Source of the DNA: Deltaproteobacteria bacterium RIFCSPLOWO2_12_FULL_60_19
GTDB taxonomy: Bacteria; Desulfobacterota; Binatia; UBA9968
NCBI GenBank assembly: GCA_001798595.1
Contig: MGSS01000131.1
Coordinates: 1-49,894 of the forward strand
DNA length: 49,894 nt
Reading direction: 5' to 3'
Part shown: in pieces, positions 3,878-15,616 of the stretch
Layout: every line of letters begins with the position of its first letter
Position numbering within the stretch: position 1 is the first letter of the stretch
Position numbers and translations under genes: made by a program
Notes under the pieces: model-generated
What the model saw: the letters and a program-made list of their open reading frames with translations, nothing else
The model's database searches: none
Told to the model about the DNA's origin: nothing

Positions 3878-5815
3878 ATGGAACTCAGCGGTGGTTTCGG
3901 GTCTGCGTCCCTCCAAGTGGAAGTTCCCCAGAGCGGCCACCACAAAGAACTGATCTCCTGTCAAGCGGCCTGCCCCGTGCACACCGACGCGCGCGGCTAC
4001 GTGCGCGCGATCGCCGGCGGCGATTTCGAGCGGGCCTATCTCATCGCCCGAGGGCCCAATCCGTTCGCCTCGATCTGCGGCCGAATCTGCGGCGCGCCGT
4101 GCGAGCTCTCCTGCCGCCGGGGAAAAATTCCTCGCACGGATGACGACGGGTCATTCGTCGCATTCGACCGGCCGATCGCGATCCGTGCTCTCAAGAGATT
4201 TGTCTGCGAATCCTACGGCGCCGAGGCGCGGCCCGCGGCTGAGATTCTGGCGGCGCTCAGCAACCATCTTCCCGGCGTTGCGGCGGATGCCGAAGAGATG
4301 GCGTCGCTGCTTCACGCCGCGGTCCAGGGAACGTTTGGGCCCGCGCGCGGGGAGCGGGTCGCCGTCATCGGCTCCGGCCCCGCCGGGCTGAGCGCGGCGC
4401 ACGATCTGGCGCTCTTGGGCTTCAAACCGGTCGTATTCGAATTGGAGCCTGTGGCCGCGGGCATGCTCGCAGTGGGCGTGCCGCAATACCGCCTTCCGCC
4501 CGAGCTGATCCGCCGGGAAGTCGCCGTGATCGAAGCGCTCGGCGTGGAGATCCGCTGCAACACCAGAGTCGGGCGCGATGTTTCGTTTCAATCTCTCAGG
4601 GAAGGATTTTCCGCCGTGATTGTCGCCGTGGGGGCGAAACGCCCCAGAGCGTTAGGTTTCATGGGCGAGCAGGGTCCGGGCGTTTACGGCGGGGTCGATT
4701 TTTTGCGCGCGGTGGCGCTCGGCGAGAGTTTGGGGCTGGGGTCGGACGTGGTTGTGATCGGCGGCGGCAACGTCGCCTACGACGTCGCGCGGACCGTCGT
4801 ACGCCAGGCGGCCTACGACGCGGCGCGCACGGCGGCGCGGCTCGCTGGAACGCGGCGTGTTCGTCTCGTTTCGCTCGAGACGCTCGAGGAGATGCCCGCC
4901 GACACTGCGGAGATAGTCGAAGGCGATGAGGAGGGGATCGAGCGAGTCTCGGGCTGGGGCCCCGTAGCCATCCAGCGCGGAGATAAGGGAAATGTCGTCG
5001 CCCTCGAAATCAAACACTGCCTTCGCGTCTATGACGAACAGCGCCGTTTCGCTCCGCAGTTCGACGAAGCCCGTCAGCAGGCTCTGGAGTGCGACACGGT
5101 TTTGATCGCCGCCGGGCAAGCGCCCGATCTTTCGTTTCTGGAGCAGGGCGGCGCCGATGTCGAGCAGTTCCGCCCGGGCTGGCCGAAGGTCGATTCCACT
5201 ACGTTCATGACTACCGCCAAAGGCGTCTTCGTCGCGGGCGACCTCGCGCATGGACCGCGGCTGTTGATCGACGCCGTGGCGTCGGGAAAGAAAGCCGCCC
5301 GCTCCGTCTATCAGTATGTCACGGGGCGCGCGCTCCATCCCGAGACGCTCATGAGCTTTGTCCGCCTCGACCGCTACCGGCGCGAGCGCGGCTACGAACG
5401 AATTCGCCGCGTGGAGCTCCCGGCGCTCGCCGCGGAGGAGCGACTCAAAGACCCAAAGGCGCAGGTGGAACGATGCCTCGAAGAAGAAGCGGCGATGCGC
5501 GAGGCCTCGCGCTGCCTCGATTGCGGCGTGACGCCGGTGTTCGACGGGAGCCGTTGCATCCTCTGCGGCGGGTGCGCCGACGTCTGCCCGACGCTTTGTC
5601 TCAAGATCGTCCCGCTCTCCTCACTGGGTCAAAACGGCGACCTGGGCGAGCTGGTGCGATCTCAGCTGGGTGAGGGCGCGGATTGGGAAAATAATTCGGC
5701 GATTTTGAAGGATGAGGATCGCTGCATCCGCTGCGCCCTATGCGTCGATCGCTGCCCCGCCGACGCCATCGCCATGGAGCGCGTGAGCTTTCAAACCGAG
5801 TGGAGGATGACATGA
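3878..5815 (+). CDS. GltD-like FAD/NAD(P) oxidoreductase with N- and C-terminal Fe-S domains
   Basis: 645 residues and first gene of the respiratory operon. The N-terminal Cys-rich domain has C28, C32, C67, C71, C75 and C79, as in the Fe-S module of the glutamate synthase small subunit. An FAD site (VAVIGSGPAGLSAAHDLALLG) lies near residue 160 and an NAD(P) site (VVVIGGGNVAYDVA) near 290. The C-terminus adds Cys clusters CLDCG, CILCGGCADVCP and CIRCALCVDRCPADAI (about 545-630), so a two-cluster ferredoxin domain is fused on. Such proteins pass electrons between NAD(P)H, FAD and Fe-S partners in the cytoplasm. Its ATGA overlap with the Rieske gene suggests it exchanges electrons with the quinone/cytochrome machinery encoded downstream. 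It is unlikely to serve glutamate synthase, as no GltB gene is near. The start at 3878 has GGAG about 13 bases upstream. Confidence 0.85.
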   Translation: MELSGGFGSASLQVEVPQSGHHKELISCQAACPVHTDARGYVRAIAGGDFERAYLIARGPNPFASICGRICGAPCELSCRRGKIPRTDDDGSFVAFDRPIAIRALKRFVCESYGAEARPAAEILAALSNHLPGVAADAEEMASLLHAAVQGTFGPARGERVAVIGSGPAGLSAAHDLALLGFKPVVFELEPVAAGMLAVGVPQYRLPPELIRREVAVIEALGVEIRCNTRVGRDVSFQSLREGFSAVIVAVGAKRPRALGFMGEQGPGVYGGVDFLRAVALGESLGLGSDVVVIGGGNVAYDVARTVVRQAAYDAARTAARLAGTRRVRLVSLETLEEMPADTAEIVEGDEEGIERVSGWGPVAIQRGDKGNVVALEIKHCLRVYDEQRRFAPQFDEARQQALECDTVLIAAGQAPDLSFLEQGGADVEQFRPGWPKVDSTTFMTTAKGVFVAGDLAHGPRLLIDAVASGKKAARSVYQYVTGRALHPETLMSFVRLDRYRRERGYERIRRVELPALAAEERLKDPKAQVERCLEEEAAMREASRCLDCGVTPVFDGSRCILCGGCADVCPTLCLKIVPLSSLGQNGDLGELVRSQLGEGADWENNSAILKDEDRCIRCALCVDRCPADAIAMERVSFQTEWRMT

Positions 5816-6309
5816 CCGTCGAAGCCAGGAAGATAGAAGCGGCCCGATCCCGGCTCGAGCCGGAGGCGATGGCGCGGCGGGATTTTCTCGGTCTCACCGC
5901 CTGGTGGTCGGCAGCGGTGGCTTTGCTTTTCGGTTTCCTCGGGGCGATGCGTCTGCCGAAGGCGGCCGTGCTGCCTTCTCCGTCGCGGAAATTCAAGGTC
6001 GCCCTGCCCCCTTCGCTGGCTGCGGGACAGGCTTATGTGCCGACCGGCCGCTCGGTAGCGCTCTACAAGGAGGGCAGTCAGGTCTACGCGATCTCCACGA
6101 TCTGCACCCATCTGGGTTGCGTCGTCAAAGCGACCGACAGCGGCTTCGATTGCCCCTGTCATGGCTCGAAATTCGGCAGGGACGGCTCCGTCTTGAAGGG
6201 TCCGGCGCCCAAAGGGCTCCCGTGGCGCGAAGTGAAACACCTGGGCGGCGACAACTTCCTGGTCGATGAAGGCAAGACCGTCGCGACGGGAACAACGGTG
6301 AGCGTATGA
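5812..6309 (+). CDS. Rieske [2Fe-2S] protein of a bc-type complex
   Basis: 165 residues from the ATG at 5812, which overlaps the previous stop (ATGA). An ARRDFLG Tat-like motif (residues 21-27) precedes one membrane anchor (about 28-46), as usual for quinol-cytochrome c reductase Rieske proteins. Cluster ligands are C98-T-H100-LGC103 and C114-PC116-H117-GSKF; the two extra cysteines form the stabilising disulfide. The C-terminal PAPKGLPW matches the Pro loop. It would accept one electron from quinol at the Qo site and pass it to cytochrome c. It is followed directly by cytochrome b with another ATGA overlap. A longer upstream reading frame start (5740) lies inside the previous gene and is rejected. 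Confidence 0.92.
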   Translation: MTVEARKIEAARSRLEPEAMARRDFLGLTAWWSAAVALLFGFLGAMRLPKAAVLPSPSRKFKVALPPSLAAGQAYVPTGRSVALYKEGSQVYAISTICTHLGCVVKATDSGFDCPCHGSKFGRDGSVLKGPAPKGLPWREVKHLGGDNFLVDEGKTVATGTTVSV

Positions 6310-7874
6310 ACGGCGTCGCGGGAAAACAGCCGACGGGCGGGGCGACGGCATTGGGCCGTTTCATGGAAAATTTACAGGCCGTGCCGCGCCGTTTTGCCGA
6401 GACGATGTTCCGCACCGGCAAGCCTCAGTCGGATCGGACCCGCTCGACGTTTGTCTTCGGCAACGTCTTTCTCCATCTGCACCCGGTCCGTATCCACCGC
6501 TGGAGCCTGCGCTGGTCGACCACCTGGGGTTTGGGCATCGCCGCCGTCTCCTGCTTTTTCGTGCTCGTGGTGACCGGCGTTCTCCTTATGTTCTACTACA
6601 AGCCGTATCCCGACGTGGCCTACCTCTCGATCAAAGATATCCACTTCGTCGTGCCCACGGGGCGCTTCATCCGCAACATCCACCGCTGGTCGGGAAATTT
6701 GATGGTCGTGGTCGTGCTGCTCCACATGGCCCGCGTTTTTTATACGGCGGCTTACCGCTCGCCGCGCGAATTCAATTGGGTGATGGGCATGGGGCTGTTA
6801 GTGACGACGCTCGGCCTCTCCTTCACCGGATATCTTCTGCCCTGGGATCAGTTGGCCTATTGGGCGATCACCATCGGCGCAAACATCGCCCAATCGCCGC
6901 GCGAAGTGACGGATGCGCTGGGGATCACGGAATGGTTCGACGTAGGCGGACTCCAAAAGCTGATCCTGTTGGGTTCCGAAGAGGTCGGAGAAGAGGCGCT
7001 CATCCGCTTCTATCTGTTTCACGTGATGATCCTGCCGTTGATTTTGATCGCGCTGATGACCGTTCATTTCTGGCGCATCCGCAAGGACGGCGGCCTGGCG
7101 CGGCCCGCAGACGCGGATAGCCGGCTCGGACCACCGGCCGCGGGCGTTTACCCGGTCTTTACCGAGGCGCCGCAAAAAACCTACAGCCTAGCCGCCATCG
7201 TAAAAGGAAGAACGCCGGCCGTCGGAAGCGGGCCGGAACAGACCGTCCCGTCGATGCCCCATCTGATGTTCGGCGAAGCCGCGGTATTCATGTTGACCAT
7301 CGTCCTCTCCGTCGTGTTCGCGATTTTGATCGACGCTCCTTTGAAAGAGGTCGCCAACCCGGCCGTGCCCGAGAACCCCGCGAAAGCGCCGTGGTATTTC
7401 CTCGGACTTCAGGAGCTGGTTTCCCACTCCGCCTTCATGGGCGGGATCGGGATTCCGATGATCGTGCTGATCGGTCTCGGCCTGATTCCATATTTGGACC
7501 GCGAGATCGCGGGAACCGGAGTATGGTTCGGCGGCCCCGGCGGCCGGCCGCTGGTCGTCCGCTCGACGGTCTTCGGCCTTGCGGCGGTGTTGGCAGTGGA
7601 GGCCTTTGTGATTCGCTTCGGCTGGATTCGCCAATGGTGGCCCGGCGTGCCTCAGATGGTCATTACCTTGCTCAATCCGGGAACGGTGCTCACGGTGTTC
7701 TACGCGGCCTACTCCGTCTGGTCTCTTAAAAAATACGACTCGACACGGGCCGGCGCGCTCGCGCTGTTTACCTGTTTCATTTGCGGTTTTGTCGTCCTGA
7801 CCGTCATCGGAACTTATTTCCGCGGGCCGAACTGGGATTTTTACTGGTGGCCGTCGCAATGGCCGGGACATTAG
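6306..7874 (+). CDS. Fused cytochrome b (b6 plus subunit IV type) of a bc-type quinol complex
   Basis: 522 residues. The four haem-b ligands are visible as H126/H140 and H239/H254. The 13- and 14-residue spacings match the cytochrome b6 pattern. The GYLLPWDQLAYWA stretch and the second half, containing the Qo loop and further membrane helices, show that both halves are fused. The Qo motif usually written PEWY reads APWY here (residues 361-364, KAPWYFLGLQE). At least eight hydrophobic helices are evident. It oxidises quinol in the membrane and feeds the Rieske protein and c haems. ATGA overlap with the Rieske gene; 58 bases separate it from the cytochrome c gene. Confidence 0.92.
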   Translation: MNGVAGKQPTGGATALGRFMENLQAVPRRFAETMFRTGKPQSDRTRSTFVFGNVFLHLHPVRIHRWSLRWSTTWGLGIAAVSCFFVLVVTGVLLMFYYKPYPDVAYLSIKDIHFVVPTGRFIRNIHRWSGNLMVVVVLLHMARVFYTAAYRSPREFNWVMGMGLLVTTLGLSFTGYLLPWDQLAYWAITIGANIAQSPREVTDALGITEWFDVGGLQKLILLGSEEVGEEALIRFYLFHVMILPLILIALMTVHFWRIRKDGGLARPADADSRLGPPAAGVYPVFTEAPQKTYSLAAIVKGRTPAVGSGPEQTVPSMPHLMFGEAAVFMLTIVLSVVFAILIDAPLKEVANPAVPENPAKAPWYFLGLQELVSHSAFMGGIGIPMIVLIGLGLIPYLDREIAGTGVWFGGPGGRPLVVRSTVFGLAAVLAVEAFVIRFGWIRQWWPGVPQMVITLLNPGTVLTVFYAAYSVWSLKKYDSTRAGALALFTCFICGFVVLTVIGTYFRGPNWDFYWWPSQWPGH

Positions 7875-7932
7875 CCCTTCGGGCATCTCAAATGACAAAT
7901 CTCAAATTGCAGATCGGAATTCGGACTGACAG

Positions 7933-9602
7933 ATGAAAGCCAACAAACACCTGCTTCTTTGGTCGAGTCTCGGGACCCTGGCCGTGCTCTTGTGGGCCGC
8001 CGTCCAGGAAAATTTCTTCCGCGACTGGCGGCTGATCCAACGGGAGATTCAGGCGCGGCTGCCTTCGGCTCAGGCCGATGCGTTTGCCATTCAACTGCGC
8101 CAGATCGTCAGCCGGCAAGTCGGAACGACCGACCGCTGCGTGAGCTGCCACGTCGGCATGACGCCGGGCGAGAGCGGCATCGAAAGCAACCGGCTTTACG
8201 GCCGCCACGCCGATGTCGTCCACGACCCGGCATCCTTCGGCTGCACTGTCTGTCACGGCGGCCAGGGTCGGGCGACCGATACGGCGGACGCGCACGGGGC
8301 GATTCCCCACTGGCCGGAGCGGATGCTCGCCAAAGAATATCTGTTTGCCGGCTGCGGCGGCTGCCACACCCACCTAAGCGTCCCCAACCTCGCAGAGCTT
8401 GAAAAAGGGCGCGCCCGCTTCGAGCAGGCCGACTGCCTGGCGTGTCACAAGGTGGACGGACGCGGCGGGACGCTACGCCCGGGCGGCGCGGGGGGCCAAG
8501 AAGGGCCCGATCTCTCCCGCGTCGGGGCCTACGGATATAAGGTGGACTGGTATGAGCTTCACCTCCAGCAAAAAAAGAAAGCGACATCAGGCCCGTGGCT
8601 CTCGGCGTTCGGCGAGCTTCTGGAATCCGAGCGTACAGCGATGGATGAATATCTCCACTCCCGCGTCGGCGCGCCCGGTCTATTGGAAGCCAAGGGGCTC
8701 TTTCACACTTTCGGCTGCCGCGGCTGCCATAAAGTCGGCGGCGTCGGCGGCGACGACGGGCCGGATCTGACCGCCGTCGGGAACAAAGATCCGGGGCAGC
8801 TCAACTTCGCGCAGGTGGCGGGCGAGCGCACGTTGGCGAATTGGCTCAAGCAGCATTTCCGTTCTCCCGCATCGGTGGTTCCCGGCTCCGTCATGCCCGA
8901 GCTGGGGCTCACGGAGCGGCAAATCGATCAACTGACCTTATACGTGTTCTCACTTCGCCGCCGGAGTTACCCTGAAGCGCTGTGGCCGAAAGACAGGATT
9001 CGGGCTGAGCGCTTCGGAACCAGAGAATTCGCCACCGACGGCGCGACGCTCTATGGGACCTTCTGCGCCGCCTGCCACGGTCCGAAAGGCGAAGGGATGC
9101 GCTATCCGGGCTTTGCCGCGTTCCCCGCCATCGGGAATCCGGATTTTCTCCGACTCGCCTCGGACGATTTTCTCCGGGAGCAGATCAAGCGCGGCCGTCC
9201 CGGACGGCGCATGCCGGCGTGGGGAGCGCAGGAAGGCGGCCTCAAGGACGGCGAGATCGGTAGGCTCGTGACCTACGTTCGAGGGCTTGGCGGCGTTGCC
9301 TACGAGGGAGATTCGAGGCCGCGCCGGTGGGCTCAAGGGGATCCGGCTGAAGGGCAGCGCTTGTACGGGGAGGCCTGCGCGTCGTGTCACGGGGAGCGCG
9401 GCGAAGGCAAAGAGGGGCCGGCGCTCAACAACCCGGTTTTCCTCGATCTCGCCACGGACAGCTATCTTTTCAAAACGGTTCAAAACGGCCGCGCGGGAAC
9501 TTCCATGGCGCCGTTCGGCGCCGGCTCGTCGGTCAGAAGTACTCTGACGGACGCGGAAATTTCCACAGTCGTCGTGTTCATCCGCAGTTGGGAGGGGAAA
9601 AA

Positions 9603-9606
<4 letters not shown>
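7933..9606 (+). CDS. Membrane-anchored seven-haem c-type cytochrome
   Basis: 557 residues with an uncleaved N-terminal anchor ([18 protein letters not shown], residues 7-24). Seven CxxCH haem sites are present: residues 69-73 (CVSCH), 104-108 (CTVCH), 141-145 (CGGCH), 168-172 (CLACH), 262-266 (CRGCH), 378-382 (CAACH) and 482-486 (CASCH). The last two lie in separate class-I cytochrome c modules with likely Met ligands (MPAWG, MAPFG). The protein looks like several c domains strung together. It would sit on the periplasmic side and carry electrons between the Rieske/b complex and the molybdoenzyme encoded next; its TGA overlaps that gene's ATG. It takes the place of the cytochrome c1 of a bc1 complex. 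Confidence 0.9.
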
Positions 9607-13060
<3,454 letters not shown>

Positions 13061-13061
<1 letters not shown>

Positions 13062-14188
13062 TGGCACGCGTATATAACTGGCAACTCGGCCGTGAGATGT
13101 CCTACTGGTATCCGGAGCGGCGGCCCAAGCGGCAGTTCGCCGCCGTGTTCGACACCAACAAATGCATCGCCTGTCAAACCTGCACGCTCGCCTGCAAGAC
13201 CACCTGGACGAGCGGCAAGGGGCAGGAGTACATGCTGTGGAACAACGTCGAGACCAAGCCTTACGGCTTTTATCCCCTGGGCTGGGACTTGAATCTGCTG
13301 GAAAAGCTCGGGGCGCAGGATTGGGACGGCGGGCAGTATGCGGGCCGGACCATCTTCGAGGCGGCGCAGCCCGGCGAGCGGGTGCTCGGCTGGCGTCCTG
13401 AAGATATCGACTACGCCAGTCCGAACGTCGGCGAAGACGACTGCGCCGGCGGCGTGGAGAAGGGCGCCCACTTCACGGGCGTGCATAACTCGTGGTTTTT
13501 TTACCTCGCGCGCATGTGCAACCACTGCACCTATCCGGCCTGTCTCTCTTCCTGCCCGCGCTCCGCGATTTACAAGCGACCGGAGGACGGCATCGTCCTG
13601 ATCGACCAGGGAAGTTGCCGGGGATATCAGGAATGCGTCAAGGCCTGTCCCTACAAGAAGACTTTTTTCAACGCGATGACGGGGACCTCCGAGAAGTGCA
13701 TCGCCTGTTTTCCGAAGATCGAAAGCGGCATGCAGCCGCAGTGTTTTGTAAACTGCATCGGCAAGATTCGCTTTGCCGGATGGATCTCCAGGCCGGAGAG
13801 CGCCAGAGCCGACAACCCGATCGACTTCCTGGTGCACGTCAAAAAAGTCGCGCTGCCGCTCTTTCCGCAATTCGGCCTGGAGCCCAACGTCTATTACATC
13901 CCGCCGATGAACGTGCCGCGCGAGTTTCTCGCGCAGATGTTCGGGCCGGGCGTCGATCAGGCGCTGGAGGCTTATCGCAACGCGCCGCGGGATAAGGATC
14001 TCGCCGGCCTGCTGACGCTGTTCGGCTCGACGGAGGCGATCGTCGCGAAATGGAAGCGGGTCGAGGAACAGGTGATCGGTTACGATGAGAGCGGAAAAGA
14101 GATCATCCGGGTTCCGCTGCGCGAGCCGACGCACATCCGCCAGGCGTTCGACGCGGCCCGCGGCGTGGCGCGGACCAATGTTTCGTGA
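13061..14188 (+). CDS. NarH/NxrB-like four-cluster Fe-S beta subunit
   Basis: 375 residues; its ATG shares an A with the preceding TAA (TAATG). Four cluster motifs are seen: C35-x2-C38-x2-C41-x3-C45; C153-x2-C156-x4-C161-x3-C165; C186-x2-Y189-x2-C192-x3-C196; and C213-x2-C216-x11-C228-x3-C232. The third has Tyr where four-Cys sites have Cys; NarH has Trp there and carries a [3Fe-4S] cluster, so the same is expected here. The subunit relays electrons between the Mo subunit and the haem-b subunit. No signal peptide is seen, so it is probably co-exported with the alpha subunit's Tat signal. A start further upstream (12869) overlaps the alpha gene and is rejected. Confidence 0.92.
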
Positions 14189-14198
14189 GGAGAAGACC

Positions 14199-15065
14199 AT
14201 GAAACCGCGACATTTTATTTTTTTAGCTGCCGTTCTTTCGGCTTCGGCCCTGGCCGGCTGCGGAAAGAAAGAGCCTCCCGTCTCTGAAGCCGAGGTCAAA
14301 GCGGTGTTCGAAAAAAGTCTGCCCTCCACCGTCGACGACAAGGTTTGGGAGCGCGTTCCGGCGCATCCCGCCAAGCTTTTGCTGCAGGACATGGTGGAGC
14401 CGCGGTTGCTGCAGGCCTCGACTCCTTTCGTGCGCGTCCAGTCGGTCACGGACGGACGAAAAGTCGCCTTCCTCCTGACCTGGAAAGATGCAACGCTGGA
14501 TGACGTCCCGGGACCCGCGCTGTTCGGCGACGCCTGCGCCGTCCAACTGCCTGCGACGACCGCCGCCGATGTTCCCGCTCCGCAGATGGGAGAGGACGGC
14601 AAAACCGTGGAGATCACCTACTGGTCGGCGATCTTTCAGGCTTCGGTCAACGGACGCAAGGACGACATTCACGCCCTCTATCCGCGGGCGGCAGTCGATC
14701 ACTATCCCTTCGAGGCGCCGTCGCTGAAAGCGGGATCTCCGCCGCAGCAGGAGATGGCGAAGCGCTACGCGCCGGCGCGCGGCGCGGAGAACCCGATGGC
14801 CGGCCCGCGGACTGTCCCCGTGCAGGATCTCCTGGCCGACGGGCCGGGAACGATTCGTTTCGCTGAGAAGACCGTTTCGAGCGGCAGTGGAAAATACTCC
14901 GGCGGCGGCTGGACGGTTTTGTTGGTCCGCCCGCTGCCGAACGGCGCGCAGCCCGGCGGGCGAACCCAGGTCGCGTTTGCCGTCTGGGAAGGCTCTCGTC
15001 AGGAGGTCGGGGCGAGAAAGATGCGCACCGCCTGGATTCCCCTTTCGCTCGGGAGCGCCCAATGA
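14199..15065 (+). CDS. Haem-b-binding gamma subunit (ethylbenzene dehydrogenase/NxrC-like), predicted lipoprotein
   Basis: 288 residues from the ATG at 14199, with a GAGGAGA ribosome site 7 bases upstream. The N-terminus is a lipoprotein signal, with hydrophobic FIFLAAVLSASALAG then C, so the mature protein begins with a lipidated Cys at about residue 24. The rest resembles the immunoglobulin-like haem-b subunits of type II DMSO-reductase enzymes: VAFLLTWKDATLDD near residue 90-103 and a C-terminal VAFAVWEGSRQEVGARKMRTAW. In this family Met and Lys ligate the haem; the Lys in GARKM is a candidate. It replaces membrane NarI as electron exit/entry of the complex and is tied to the membrane by lipid. 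Family call from context and motifs. Confidence 0.8.
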   Translation: MKPRHFIFLAAVLSASALAGCGKKEPPVSEAEVKAVFEKSLPSTVDDKVWERVPAHPAKLLLQDMVEPRLLQASTPFVRVQSVTDGRKVAFLLTWKDATLDDVPGPALFGDACAVQLPATTAADVPAPQMGEDGKTVEITYWSAIFQASVNGRKDDIHALYPRAAVDHYPFEAPSLKAGSPPQQEMAKRYAPARGAENPMAGPRTVPVQDLLADGPGTIRFAEKTVSSGSGKYSGGGWTVLLVRPLPNGAQPGGRTQVAFAVWEGSRQEVGARKMRTAWIPLSLGSAQ

Positions 15066-15616
15066 ACGTCTCTGCCGATCCCAAAACGCAGCAGCTTGTG
15101 GCGCAAGCGGCGGCATGGCGTCTCGCCTCCCTTCTCCTGGAGCGACCGCGGCAGGAATGGAAAAACGAGCTTTTGGAACTCTGCTCCGAGGTGGCCGATC
15201 GAAAACTTTTATCCTCGGCTAAGCGGGCCGCTCAAGTATCCGAGGAAATCTATCACCGGATTTTCGGCCCGGGCGGAACCGCGTCTCCGAGGGAGGTGAG
15301 CTATTGTGGGTTCGAAGATCCCGGCCGTGTGATGGCGGATGTGGCGGCTTTTTATCAGGCGTTCGCGTTTCAGCCGCGCCGGGAGGAGGCGATCGACCAT
15401 ATCGCCGTCGAGGCCGGCTTCGTCAGTTACCTGCTCTTGAAAGAGGCTTACGCCCGCGCGCAGGGCGACCCGGAATCCGCCGAAGTCACAAACAACGCGT
15501 GCCGGCGCTTCGTGGGGGAGCATGTTGGACGGTGCGCCCGCGGCATGATGAATCGACTCAAGGCGGTCCCGCCCTACCTCCGCGGCGTGTTGTCGTGGTT
15601 GGCGGAGAAAAAGTAA
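15062..15616 (+). CDS. TorD/NarJ-family molybdoenzyme chaperone
   Basis: 184 residues, mostly helical by composition, starting in an ATGA overlap with the haem-b subunit. The region VMADVAAFYQAFAF and the later DHIAVEAGFVSYLLLKEAYA match the TorD/DmsD/NarJ pattern (Y-x-x-F and E-F/H-L-x-x-L-L-type motifs). These cytoplasmic chaperones bind the Tat signal and hold the catalytic subunit until the molybdenum cofactor and Fe-S clusters are inserted. Its position right after the alpha, beta and gamma genes supports a dedicated role for this complex. Last gene of the operon. Confidence 0.85.
   Translation: MNVSADPKTQQLVAQAAAWRLASLLLERPRQEWKNELLELCSEVADRKLLSSAKRAAQVSEEIYHRIFGPGGTASPREVSYCGFEDPGRVMADVAAFYQAFAFQPRREEAIDHIAVEAGFVSYLLLKEAYARAQGDPESAEVTNNACRRFVGEHVGRCARGMMNRLKAVPPYLRGVLSWLAEKK

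What the first reader, a model, noticed from the sequence alone, without database searches (positions are those of the whole stretch)
3878..15616. bc-type quinol complex and an exported NarG/NxrA-like molybdoenzyme built as one operon
Seen: eight genes in one direction, mostly with ATGA or TAATG overlaps, encoding flavoprotein/ferredoxin, Rieske, cytochrome b, seven-haem cytochrome c, Mo subunit with Tat signal, Fe-S subunit, haem-b lipoprotein and chaperone; no NarI. Known: outward-facing nitrate reductases of haloarchaea are linked to Rieske/cytochrome b genes, and nitrite oxidoreductases use c cytochromes. Inference: this is a supercomplex that moves electrons between quinone, c haems and nitrate/nitrite (or another oxyanion), with the GltD-like protein as a possible NAD(P)H link, a combination I do not know as a described unit.
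Basis: partly seen in the sequence, partly recalled or inferred. Interest (0 to 1): 0.72.

Follow-up and report, generated by a model that had tools for sequence, protein, structure and literature searches.

The report
Quinol-fed outward-facing nitrate reductase operon
Eight adjacent genes, kept in the same order in bacteria of at least six phyla including one cultured nitrate-breathing species, very probably build one machine that carries electrons from the membrane quinone pool through a cytochrome bc-type complex to a nitrate-reducing enzyme outside the cell, possibly also feeding NADH, and sequence surveys are likely to mistake it for a nitrite-oxidising enzyme.

Summary
The eight genes are GltD-like flavoprotein/ferredoxin, Rieske, fused cytochrome b, seven-haem cytochrome c, Tat-exported Mo alpha, Fe-S beta, haem-b lipoprotein gamma and chaperone. 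The order is kept in 46 of 47 testable loci from at least six phyla, and subunit distances correlate (r 0.83-0.89). The alpha is full-length NxrA-like (891 bits to Kuenenia NXR-A; next best 182). It forms its own clade, sister to anammox-type NXR, and bc genes occur only in this clade: 16 of 16 anammox-type NXR loci lack them. A genome that must be cultured Thermogutta terrifontis R1 (identical length, 4,810,751 bp) has the whole unit. There it is the only NarG/NapA/NXR-like Mo enzyme in an organism reported to grow on nitrate, so the likeliest direction is quinol to nitrate. The published note called it cytoplasmic NarGHI beside bc1 genes. The FAD/Fe-S subunit resembles Nfn/Bfu bifurcating enzymes, and anammox Rieske/cytochrome b complexes carry a counterpart proposed to make NAD(P)H; that link is unproven here. 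Close analogues: haloarchaeal Nar and anammox R/b complexes. A sister operon couples the same module to a PcrA-type enzyme. New variant of a known kind, likely miscounted as nitrite oxidation.

The parts
3878..5815 (+). GltD-like FAD/NAD(P) oxidoreductase with N-terminal Fer4_20 and C-terminal [4Fe-4S] ferredoxin domain, no signal peptide seen (cytoplasmic side)
   Evidence: best solved relatives are bifurcating NfnABC 9bov/9bp5, 8oh5, NfnA 9n5u
5812..6309 (+). Rieske [2Fe-2S] protein with RR-type N-terminus; cluster motif CTHLGC...CPCHGSKF
   Evidence: near-best solved relatives include 9rk4/9rk3, named in the PDB as Rieske proteins and taken to be the anammox ones of PMC12954380
6306..7874 (+). 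fused b6/subunit-IV type cytochrome b, 522 aa; haem ligands H126, H140, H239, H254 invariant in 65/65; no haem cN cysteine (Gly75 in 65/65)
7933..9606 (+). seven-haem cytochrome c with N-terminal membrane anchor (7 CXXCH in 62 of 71 relatives)
9603..13061 (+). Mo catalytic alpha subunit, NxrA-like, Tat signal, FS0/substrate motif CAPNDTHNC, Mo-ligand motif NYSWHTD
13061..14188 (+). NxrB/NarH-like Fe-S beta subunit
   Evidence: (393 bits to Kuenenia NXR-B 7b04_A)
14199..15065 (+). EbdC/NXR-C-like haem-b gamma subunit, lipoprotein signal LAGC, conserved Met and Lys at ligand positions
15062..15616 (+). TorD/NarJ-type Mo-enzyme chaperone

Best explanation
The operon encodes a periplasm-facing, quinol-driven nitrate reductase system. 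Quinol is oxidised by the Rieske/cytochrome b pair. The high-potential electron goes through Rieske and the membrane-anchored seven-haem cytochrome c to the gamma haem b, the beta Fe-S chain and the Mo site of the NXR-type alpha, where nitrate is reduced to nitrite outside the cytoplasmic membrane. Because the electrons pass through a bc-type Q-cycle, this can conserve energy, unlike simple Nap systems. The cytoplasmic GltD-like FAD/Fe-S subunit sits at the low-potential face and links the complex to NAD(H), most simply by the quinol-bifurcation route proposed for anammox Rieske/cytochrome b complexes. Shown: gene content, order, conservation, alpha clade, cofactor motifs and presence in Thermogutta. 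Inferred: physical complex, nitrate as substrate, direction, and the NAD branch.
For: Alpha matches Kuenenia NXR-A end to end (891 bits; PcrA 182, EbdA 158, NarG 134), with the C-x2-N-D-x3-C motif that carries substrate Asn70 and cluster ligand Asp71 in the solved NXR (PMC8387239) in 77/77 relatives, and NYSWHTD in 81/81. Beta and gamma best match NXR-B and NXR-C. Eight-gene order: 46/47 loci. Subunit distances correlate, r 0.83-0.89, 0 of 500 permutations as high. In 396 Acidobacteriota genomes, every genome with the cytochrome b at about 70% identity or more also has the alpha, 26 of 26 by comparing lists. Flanking genes in relatives are Rrf2, RIC/ScdA, Crp/Fnr and YwiC; three of 12 genomes have full-length NrfA; G006 lacks a credible haem-copper oxidase. 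Haloferax larsenii has the same layout, Rieske-cyt b-NarG-NarH-EbdC-TorD, and haloarchaeal Nar is antimycin-sensitive (cited in PMC4683180).
Against: NXR-type enzymes are bidirectional (PMC8387239), so sequence cannot fix the direction. No biochemistry was found for any member of this clade. The window's own flanks hold no nitrogen-oxide genes and its genome gave no NrfA hit. The cytochrome b lacks the haem cN cysteine, whereas the anammox complexes are modelled with haem cN, so the bifurcation path cannot be copied unchanged.
Confidence: 0.68

Rival explanations
1. It is a nitrite oxidoreductase system: nitrite is oxidised outside, electrons enter the seven-haem cytochrome c, and the bc-type complex runs in reverse, driven by proton-motive force, to make quinol and, through the GltD-like subunit, NAD(P)H.
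For: The alpha's sister clade is bona fide NXR; Kuenenia NXR works in both directions (PMC8387239); most bearer genomes, including the window's, have haem-copper oxidases; a GltD-like subunit would suit reverse electron transport.
Against: Cultured bearer T. terrifontis is a nitrate-reducing, fermenting or oxygen-respiring heterotroph; Rrf2/RIC/Crp flanks and NrfA fit nitrogen-oxide reduction; G006 lacks a credible haem-copper oxidase; the window's organism also has a separate anammox-type NXR without bc genes.
Confidence: 0.17
2. The enzyme reduces another oxyanion, such as (per)chlorate or selenate, with the same electron route.
For: Type II DMSO reductases act on several oxyanions; a sister operon in Acidobacteriota couples the same GltD-Rieske-cyt b-multihaem c module to a PcrA-type alpha (984 bits to PcrA).
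Against: The window alpha scores about five times more bits against NXR than against PcrA and keeps the NXR-type FS0/substrate motif in 77/77 relatives; in Thermogutta it is the only nitrate-reductase candidate.
Confidence: 0.1
3. The bc-type genes and the Mo enzyme share an operon for regulation only; the bc part is a general complex III feeding a soluble cytochrome c pool, and the GltD-like protein does unrelated NAD(P)H/ferredoxin chemistry.
For: No physical data; the same cytochrome b subfamily occurs elsewhere in other settings; T. terrifontis authors described a complex III beside Nar.
Against: Near-perfect linkage and co-occurrence and correlated divergence; the window's genome has two other cytochromes b, so this one is not needed as the only complex III; the layout recurs with a different alpha and in haloarchaea.
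Confidence: 0.15

Closest known systems
Nar/bc1 gene group of Thermogutta terrifontis R1 (THTE_1506-1512; PMC5673643)
   Same: Same eight genes in the same order in the genome whose length matches R1 exactly (L179:4251-16242, minus strand). The authors already suggested complex III involvement in nitrate growth.
   Different: They read it as cytoplasmic NarGHI with a NarI and did not mention the GltD-like gene; here the third subunit is an EbdC/NXR-C-type haem-b protein and the alpha carries a Tat-type N-terminus. The wider family was not described.
Anammox Rieske/cytochrome b complexes Kuste4569-4574 and Kustd1480-1485 (PMC12954380)
   Same: Rieske + b6-like cytochrome b/subunit IV + multihaem c + cytoplasmic NAD(P) oxidoreductase related to NfnABC 9bp5; the window's flavoprotein has the same best solved relative and its Rieske matches 9rk4/9rk3.
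   Different: Anammox complexes are modelled with haem cN and have separate b6 and subunit IV; their high-potential partner is an HAO-like protein or unknown, not an NXR-type enzyme.
Periplasmic nitrite oxidoreductase NXR of anammox, Nitrospira and Nitrospina
   Same: Alpha, beta and haem-b gamma homologous, Tat export, Asp/Cys FS0 motif.
   Different: Separate clade at about 43% identity; 16 sampled anammox-type loci lack Rieske/cyt b/GltD and most have a dihaem c-fused gamma.
Haloarchaeal outward-facing nitrate reductase operon (Haloferax)
   Same: Gene order Rieske-cyt b-NarG-NarH-EbdC-type-TorD; cyt b and gamma homologous.
   Different: Alpha only about 25% identical, no multihaem c and no GltD-like gene.
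Bacterial NarGHI
   Same: Type II DMSOR alpha and beta plus NarJ-type chaperone.
   Different: Cytoplasmic, NarI quinol oxidase; here no NarI in the operon and an exported alpha; 134 bits to E. coli NarG.

Membership tests
Periplasmic NXR (anammox/Nitrospira type) | alpha inside the NXR clade | tested here: not met
   forms its own 100%-supported clade sister to the anammox-type clade (quick tree); 42-44% identity
Periplasmic NXR (anammox/Nitrospira type) | FS0 with three Cys and one Asp, substrate Asn, Mo-ligand Asp | tested here: met
   CAPNDTHNC 77/77 and NYSWHTD 81/81; residues from PMC8387239
Periplasmic NXR (anammox/Nitrospira type) | EbdC-type gamma with Met/Lys haem b | tested here: met
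Periplasmic NXR (anammox/Nitrospira type) | nitrite oxidation in vivo | not testable with these tools
   no biochemistry; the cultured bearer reduces nitrate
Bacterial NarGHI | NarI di-haem membrane subunit and cytoplasmic alpha | tested here: not met
   no NarI-like gene in the operon; Tat-type N-terminus
Anammox-type NAD(P)-linked Rieske/cyt b complex | Rieske, b6-like cyt b with subunit IV, multihaem c, Nfn-like FAD/Fe-S subunit | tested here: met
Anammox-type NAD(P)-linked Rieske/cyt b complex | covalent haem cN in cytochrome b | tested here: not met
   b6 Cys35 position is Gly in 65/65 (position assigned by eye from the b6 sequence)
Anammox-type NAD(P)-linked Rieske/cyt b complex | NAD(P)+ reduction by quinol bifurcation | not testable with these tools
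   only proposed for anammox (PMC12954380)
Haloarchaeal Rieske/cyt b-linked Nar | Rieske-cyt b-NarG-NarH-EbdC-type-chaperone operon | tested here: met
Haloarchaeal Rieske/cyt b-linked Nar | alpha of the haloarchaeal NarG clade | tested here: not met
   about 25% identity; distant branch

The most novel reading that the evidence does not exclude
The eight proteins form one supercomplex that bifurcates each quinol's two electrons: one goes out through Rieske, seven haems and the NXR-type enzyme to nitrate, the other in through cytochrome b and the FAD/Fe-S subunit to NAD+, so that nitrate respiration directly drives NADH formation. The same chassis takes other oxyanion enzymes (PcrA type).
Probability: 0.33. 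Interest if true: 0.87.

Novelty: new variant of a known kind. Interest (0 to 1): 0.63.

Why it matters
The unit is common: about 7% of 396 sampled Acidobacteriota species carry it, and it occurs in Planctomycetota, Myxococcota-type and other lineages. By sequence its alpha looks like nxrA, so marker-gene surveys can report 'nitrite oxidisers' where nitrate reducers live (a published Planctomycetota survey faced exactly this ambiguity, PMC10732223). If the NAD branch is real, it makes the proposed but untested quinol-bifurcating Rieske/cytochrome b mechanism testable in a cultured heterotroph, Thermogutta terrifontis, instead of anammox bacteria, in which mutational studies cannot be done (PMC8387239).

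Tried and rejected
No 16S rRNA was found, so the organism is placed only by its relatives. Diagnostic idea dropped: the FLHLHP histidines before the first cytochrome b helix looked like the extra haem-b ligands modelled in anammox complexes, but the motif also occurs in b6-type cytochromes whose loci have no GltD-like gene in view (L186), so it is not specific. Rieske Phe instead of Tyr was considered as evidence for low potential; dropped because Kustd1480 also has Phe and still measures +335 mV (PMC12954380). A first synteny count with stop-to-stop HMMs gave spurious order breaks and was redone with phmmer best hits. L079 is the one exception: truncated alpha, and the genome believed to hold it (G424) is absent from the cytochrome b match list; probably a broken or misassembled copy. 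Structure prediction was not run: single-chain models would not decide complex formation. Paper searches found no description of the eight-gene family in the open library.
Full report
WHAT IS THERE. The eight genes reported are real, all on the + strand, at 3878-15616. Five of the seven junctions overlap (ATGA or TAATG); the cytochrome b/c junction has a 58-nt gap and beta/gamma a 10-nt gap. Domains: Fer4_20/Pyr_redox_2/Fer4; Rieske; cytochrome b; seven CXXCH; molybdopterin oxidoreductase; Fe-S beta; ethylbenzene-dehydrogenase-type haem-b gamma; nitrate reductase delta/TorD-type chaperone. The alpha begins with a Tat motif and the gamma with a lipobox, both read from the sequence. No NarI-type gene is in the operon.

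WHAT THE ENZYME IS. The alpha matches Kuenenia NXR-A over its whole length with 891 bits; perchlorate reductase, ethylbenzene dehydrogenase and NarG score 182, 158 and 134. Beta and gamma also match NXR-B and NXR-C best. In the solved NXR, Asn70 is placed to bind substrate, Asp71 with three cysteines holds FS0, and Asp275 binds Mo (PMC8387239). The same motifs are invariant here: CAPNDTHNC in 77/77 and NYSWHTD in 81/81 relatives. A quick ML tree puts the window alpha in a clade of its own (100% SH-aLRT), sister to the anammox-type clade (100%), with haloarchaeal and E. coli NarG far off. The tree lacks named Nitrotoga, Nitrospira and Hydrogenobacter sequences, so its place within the published 'sister clade' of NXR (PMC6050957) is not settled.

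THE UNIT IS CONSERVED. A genome scan gave 80 loci. Where the contig is long enough, all eight genes stand in order in 46 of 47 loci, in records titled Acidobacteria, Planctomycetota, Deltaproteobacteria/Anaeromyxobacter, Verrucomicrobiae, Poribacteria, Abyssobacteria and Acidimicrobiia (some bins may be wrong). Subunit distance matrices correlate with the alpha's at r 0.83-0.89, with 0 of 500 permutations as high. In 396 Acidobacteriota genomes, all 26 with a cytochrome b of about 70% identity or more also have the alpha (comparison). The bc link is specific to this clade: 16 of 16 anammox-type NXR loci have no linked Rieske, cytochrome b or GltD gene and most have a gamma fused to two c haems, and four loci of intermediate alphas (60-63% identity; one at 55%) also lack an adjacent bc module. 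The window's own genome has both kinds: this operon, and an anammox-type NXR (1813 bits to Kuenenia NXR-A) without bc genes.

A CULTURED BEARER. Genome G501 has one contig of 4,810,751 bp, the exact length given for Thermogutta terrifontis R1 (PMC5673643); it is in the order of G003, a Pirellulales record, as Thermogutta is. Its alpha lies on the minus strand, as THTE_1509 should, and nrfHA lies where THTE_1449-1450 should. It carries all eight genes, including the seven-haem c and the GltD-like gene. Its only other PF00384 proteins are TtrA-like and NuoG. The paper reports anaerobic growth with nitrate and noted bc1 genes beside 'NarGHI'. So in one cultured nitrate reducer this unit holds the only NarG/NapA/NXR-type candidate. 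Its third subunit is of the EbdC/NXR-C haem-b type, not NarI, and the alpha has a Tat-type N-terminus, so the published cytoplasmic NarGHI assignment should be revised.

DIRECTION. Flanks in relatives hold Rrf2 regulators, RIC/ScdA repair proteins, Crp/Fnr and YwiC. Full-length NrfA occurs in three of 12 bearer genomes. One bearer, G006, has no credible haem-copper oxidase (MAG completeness not given). These fit nitrate reduction. Against certainty: NXR is bidirectional, most bearers have oxidases, and the window's own flanks hold no nitrogen-oxide genes.

MECHANISM. Cytochrome b has all four haem ligands (65/65) but no cN cysteine (Gly75, 65/65). The Rieske protein's near-best solved relatives include 9rk4 and 9rk3, which by their PDB names and date I take to be the anammox Rieske proteins of PMC12954380. 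The GltD-like protein's best solved relatives are bifurcating NfnABC 9bov/9bp5, 8oh5 and NfnA, and 9bp5 is the relative named for the anammox subunit. In the anammox complexes one electron of quinol is proposed to go to NAD(P)+ and one to a high-potential acceptor. Here the high-potential acceptor enzyme is encoded in the same operon. Conserved 'sLE' where GltD-type proteins have Arg (alignment) hints at NADH rather than NADPH (inference from general knowledge of Rossmann folds).

MODULE RE-USE. Two Acidobacteriota loci carry GltD - Rieske - cytochrome b (58-59% identity) - six-haem c - a PcrA-type alpha - beta - gamma, with the TorD-type chaperone, RIC and Crp seen in one (L190, L191; the Rieske gene was read in L190 only). 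Haloferax larsenii has Rieske - cytochrome b - NarG - NarH - EbdC-type - TorD. The bc module therefore looks like a chassis used with several exported type II DMSO reductase-family enzymes.

VERDICT. Observation confirmed; interpretation mostly upheld and sharpened. It works like an outward-facing, bc-coupled nitrate reductase and is not a member of the NXR clade or of NarGHI. The supercomplex and the NAD branch are inferences that can be tested in Thermogutta.

Noticed in passing
L114:7349-16175 (G000:C8): The window's own genome has a second, anammox-type NXR cluster: EB_dh gamma fused to two c haems, NxrA (1813 bits to Kuenenia NXR-A), NxrB, TorD-type chaperone; no bc genes.
   Followed up: partly
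L190:2337-12900 and L191:792-10956: Acidobacteriota operon with the same GltD-Rieske-cytochrome b-multihaem c module joined to a PcrA-type molybdoenzyme (984 bits to PcrA); Crp and RIC genes beside it in L190.
   Followed up: partly
L187:5277-11689 (G006:C73): Another pairing: NxrB-like, gamma-like and TorD-like genes next to split b6/subunit IV and an eight-haem cytochrome c in an Abyssobacteria genome; the alpha may lie past the contig end.
   Followed up: no
L153, L067, L069: Members near the base of the alpha clade have separate b6 and subunit IV genes, and some have 8-9-haem cytochromes, closer to the anammox layout.
   Followed up: no
L167:9700-13390 (Natronococcus occultus plasmid 2): An alpha 50% identical to the window's, with no listed gene over it, followed by a 4Fe-4S protein and a TorD-type chaperone, with a cbb3-type oxidase subunit I gene and ric nearby; possibly a broken gene, as its open frame begins inside the protein.
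   Followed up: no
G000: The window's genome gives 20 matches to the molybdopterin oxidoreductase family, many for a 4.2 Mb genome.
   Followed up: no
L186:3769-8413 (G000:C9): A second bc-type complex in the window's genome with split b6/subunit IV, haem cN cysteine (TWCMGG) and an eight-haem cytochrome c, no GltD-like gene nearby.
   Followed up: partly
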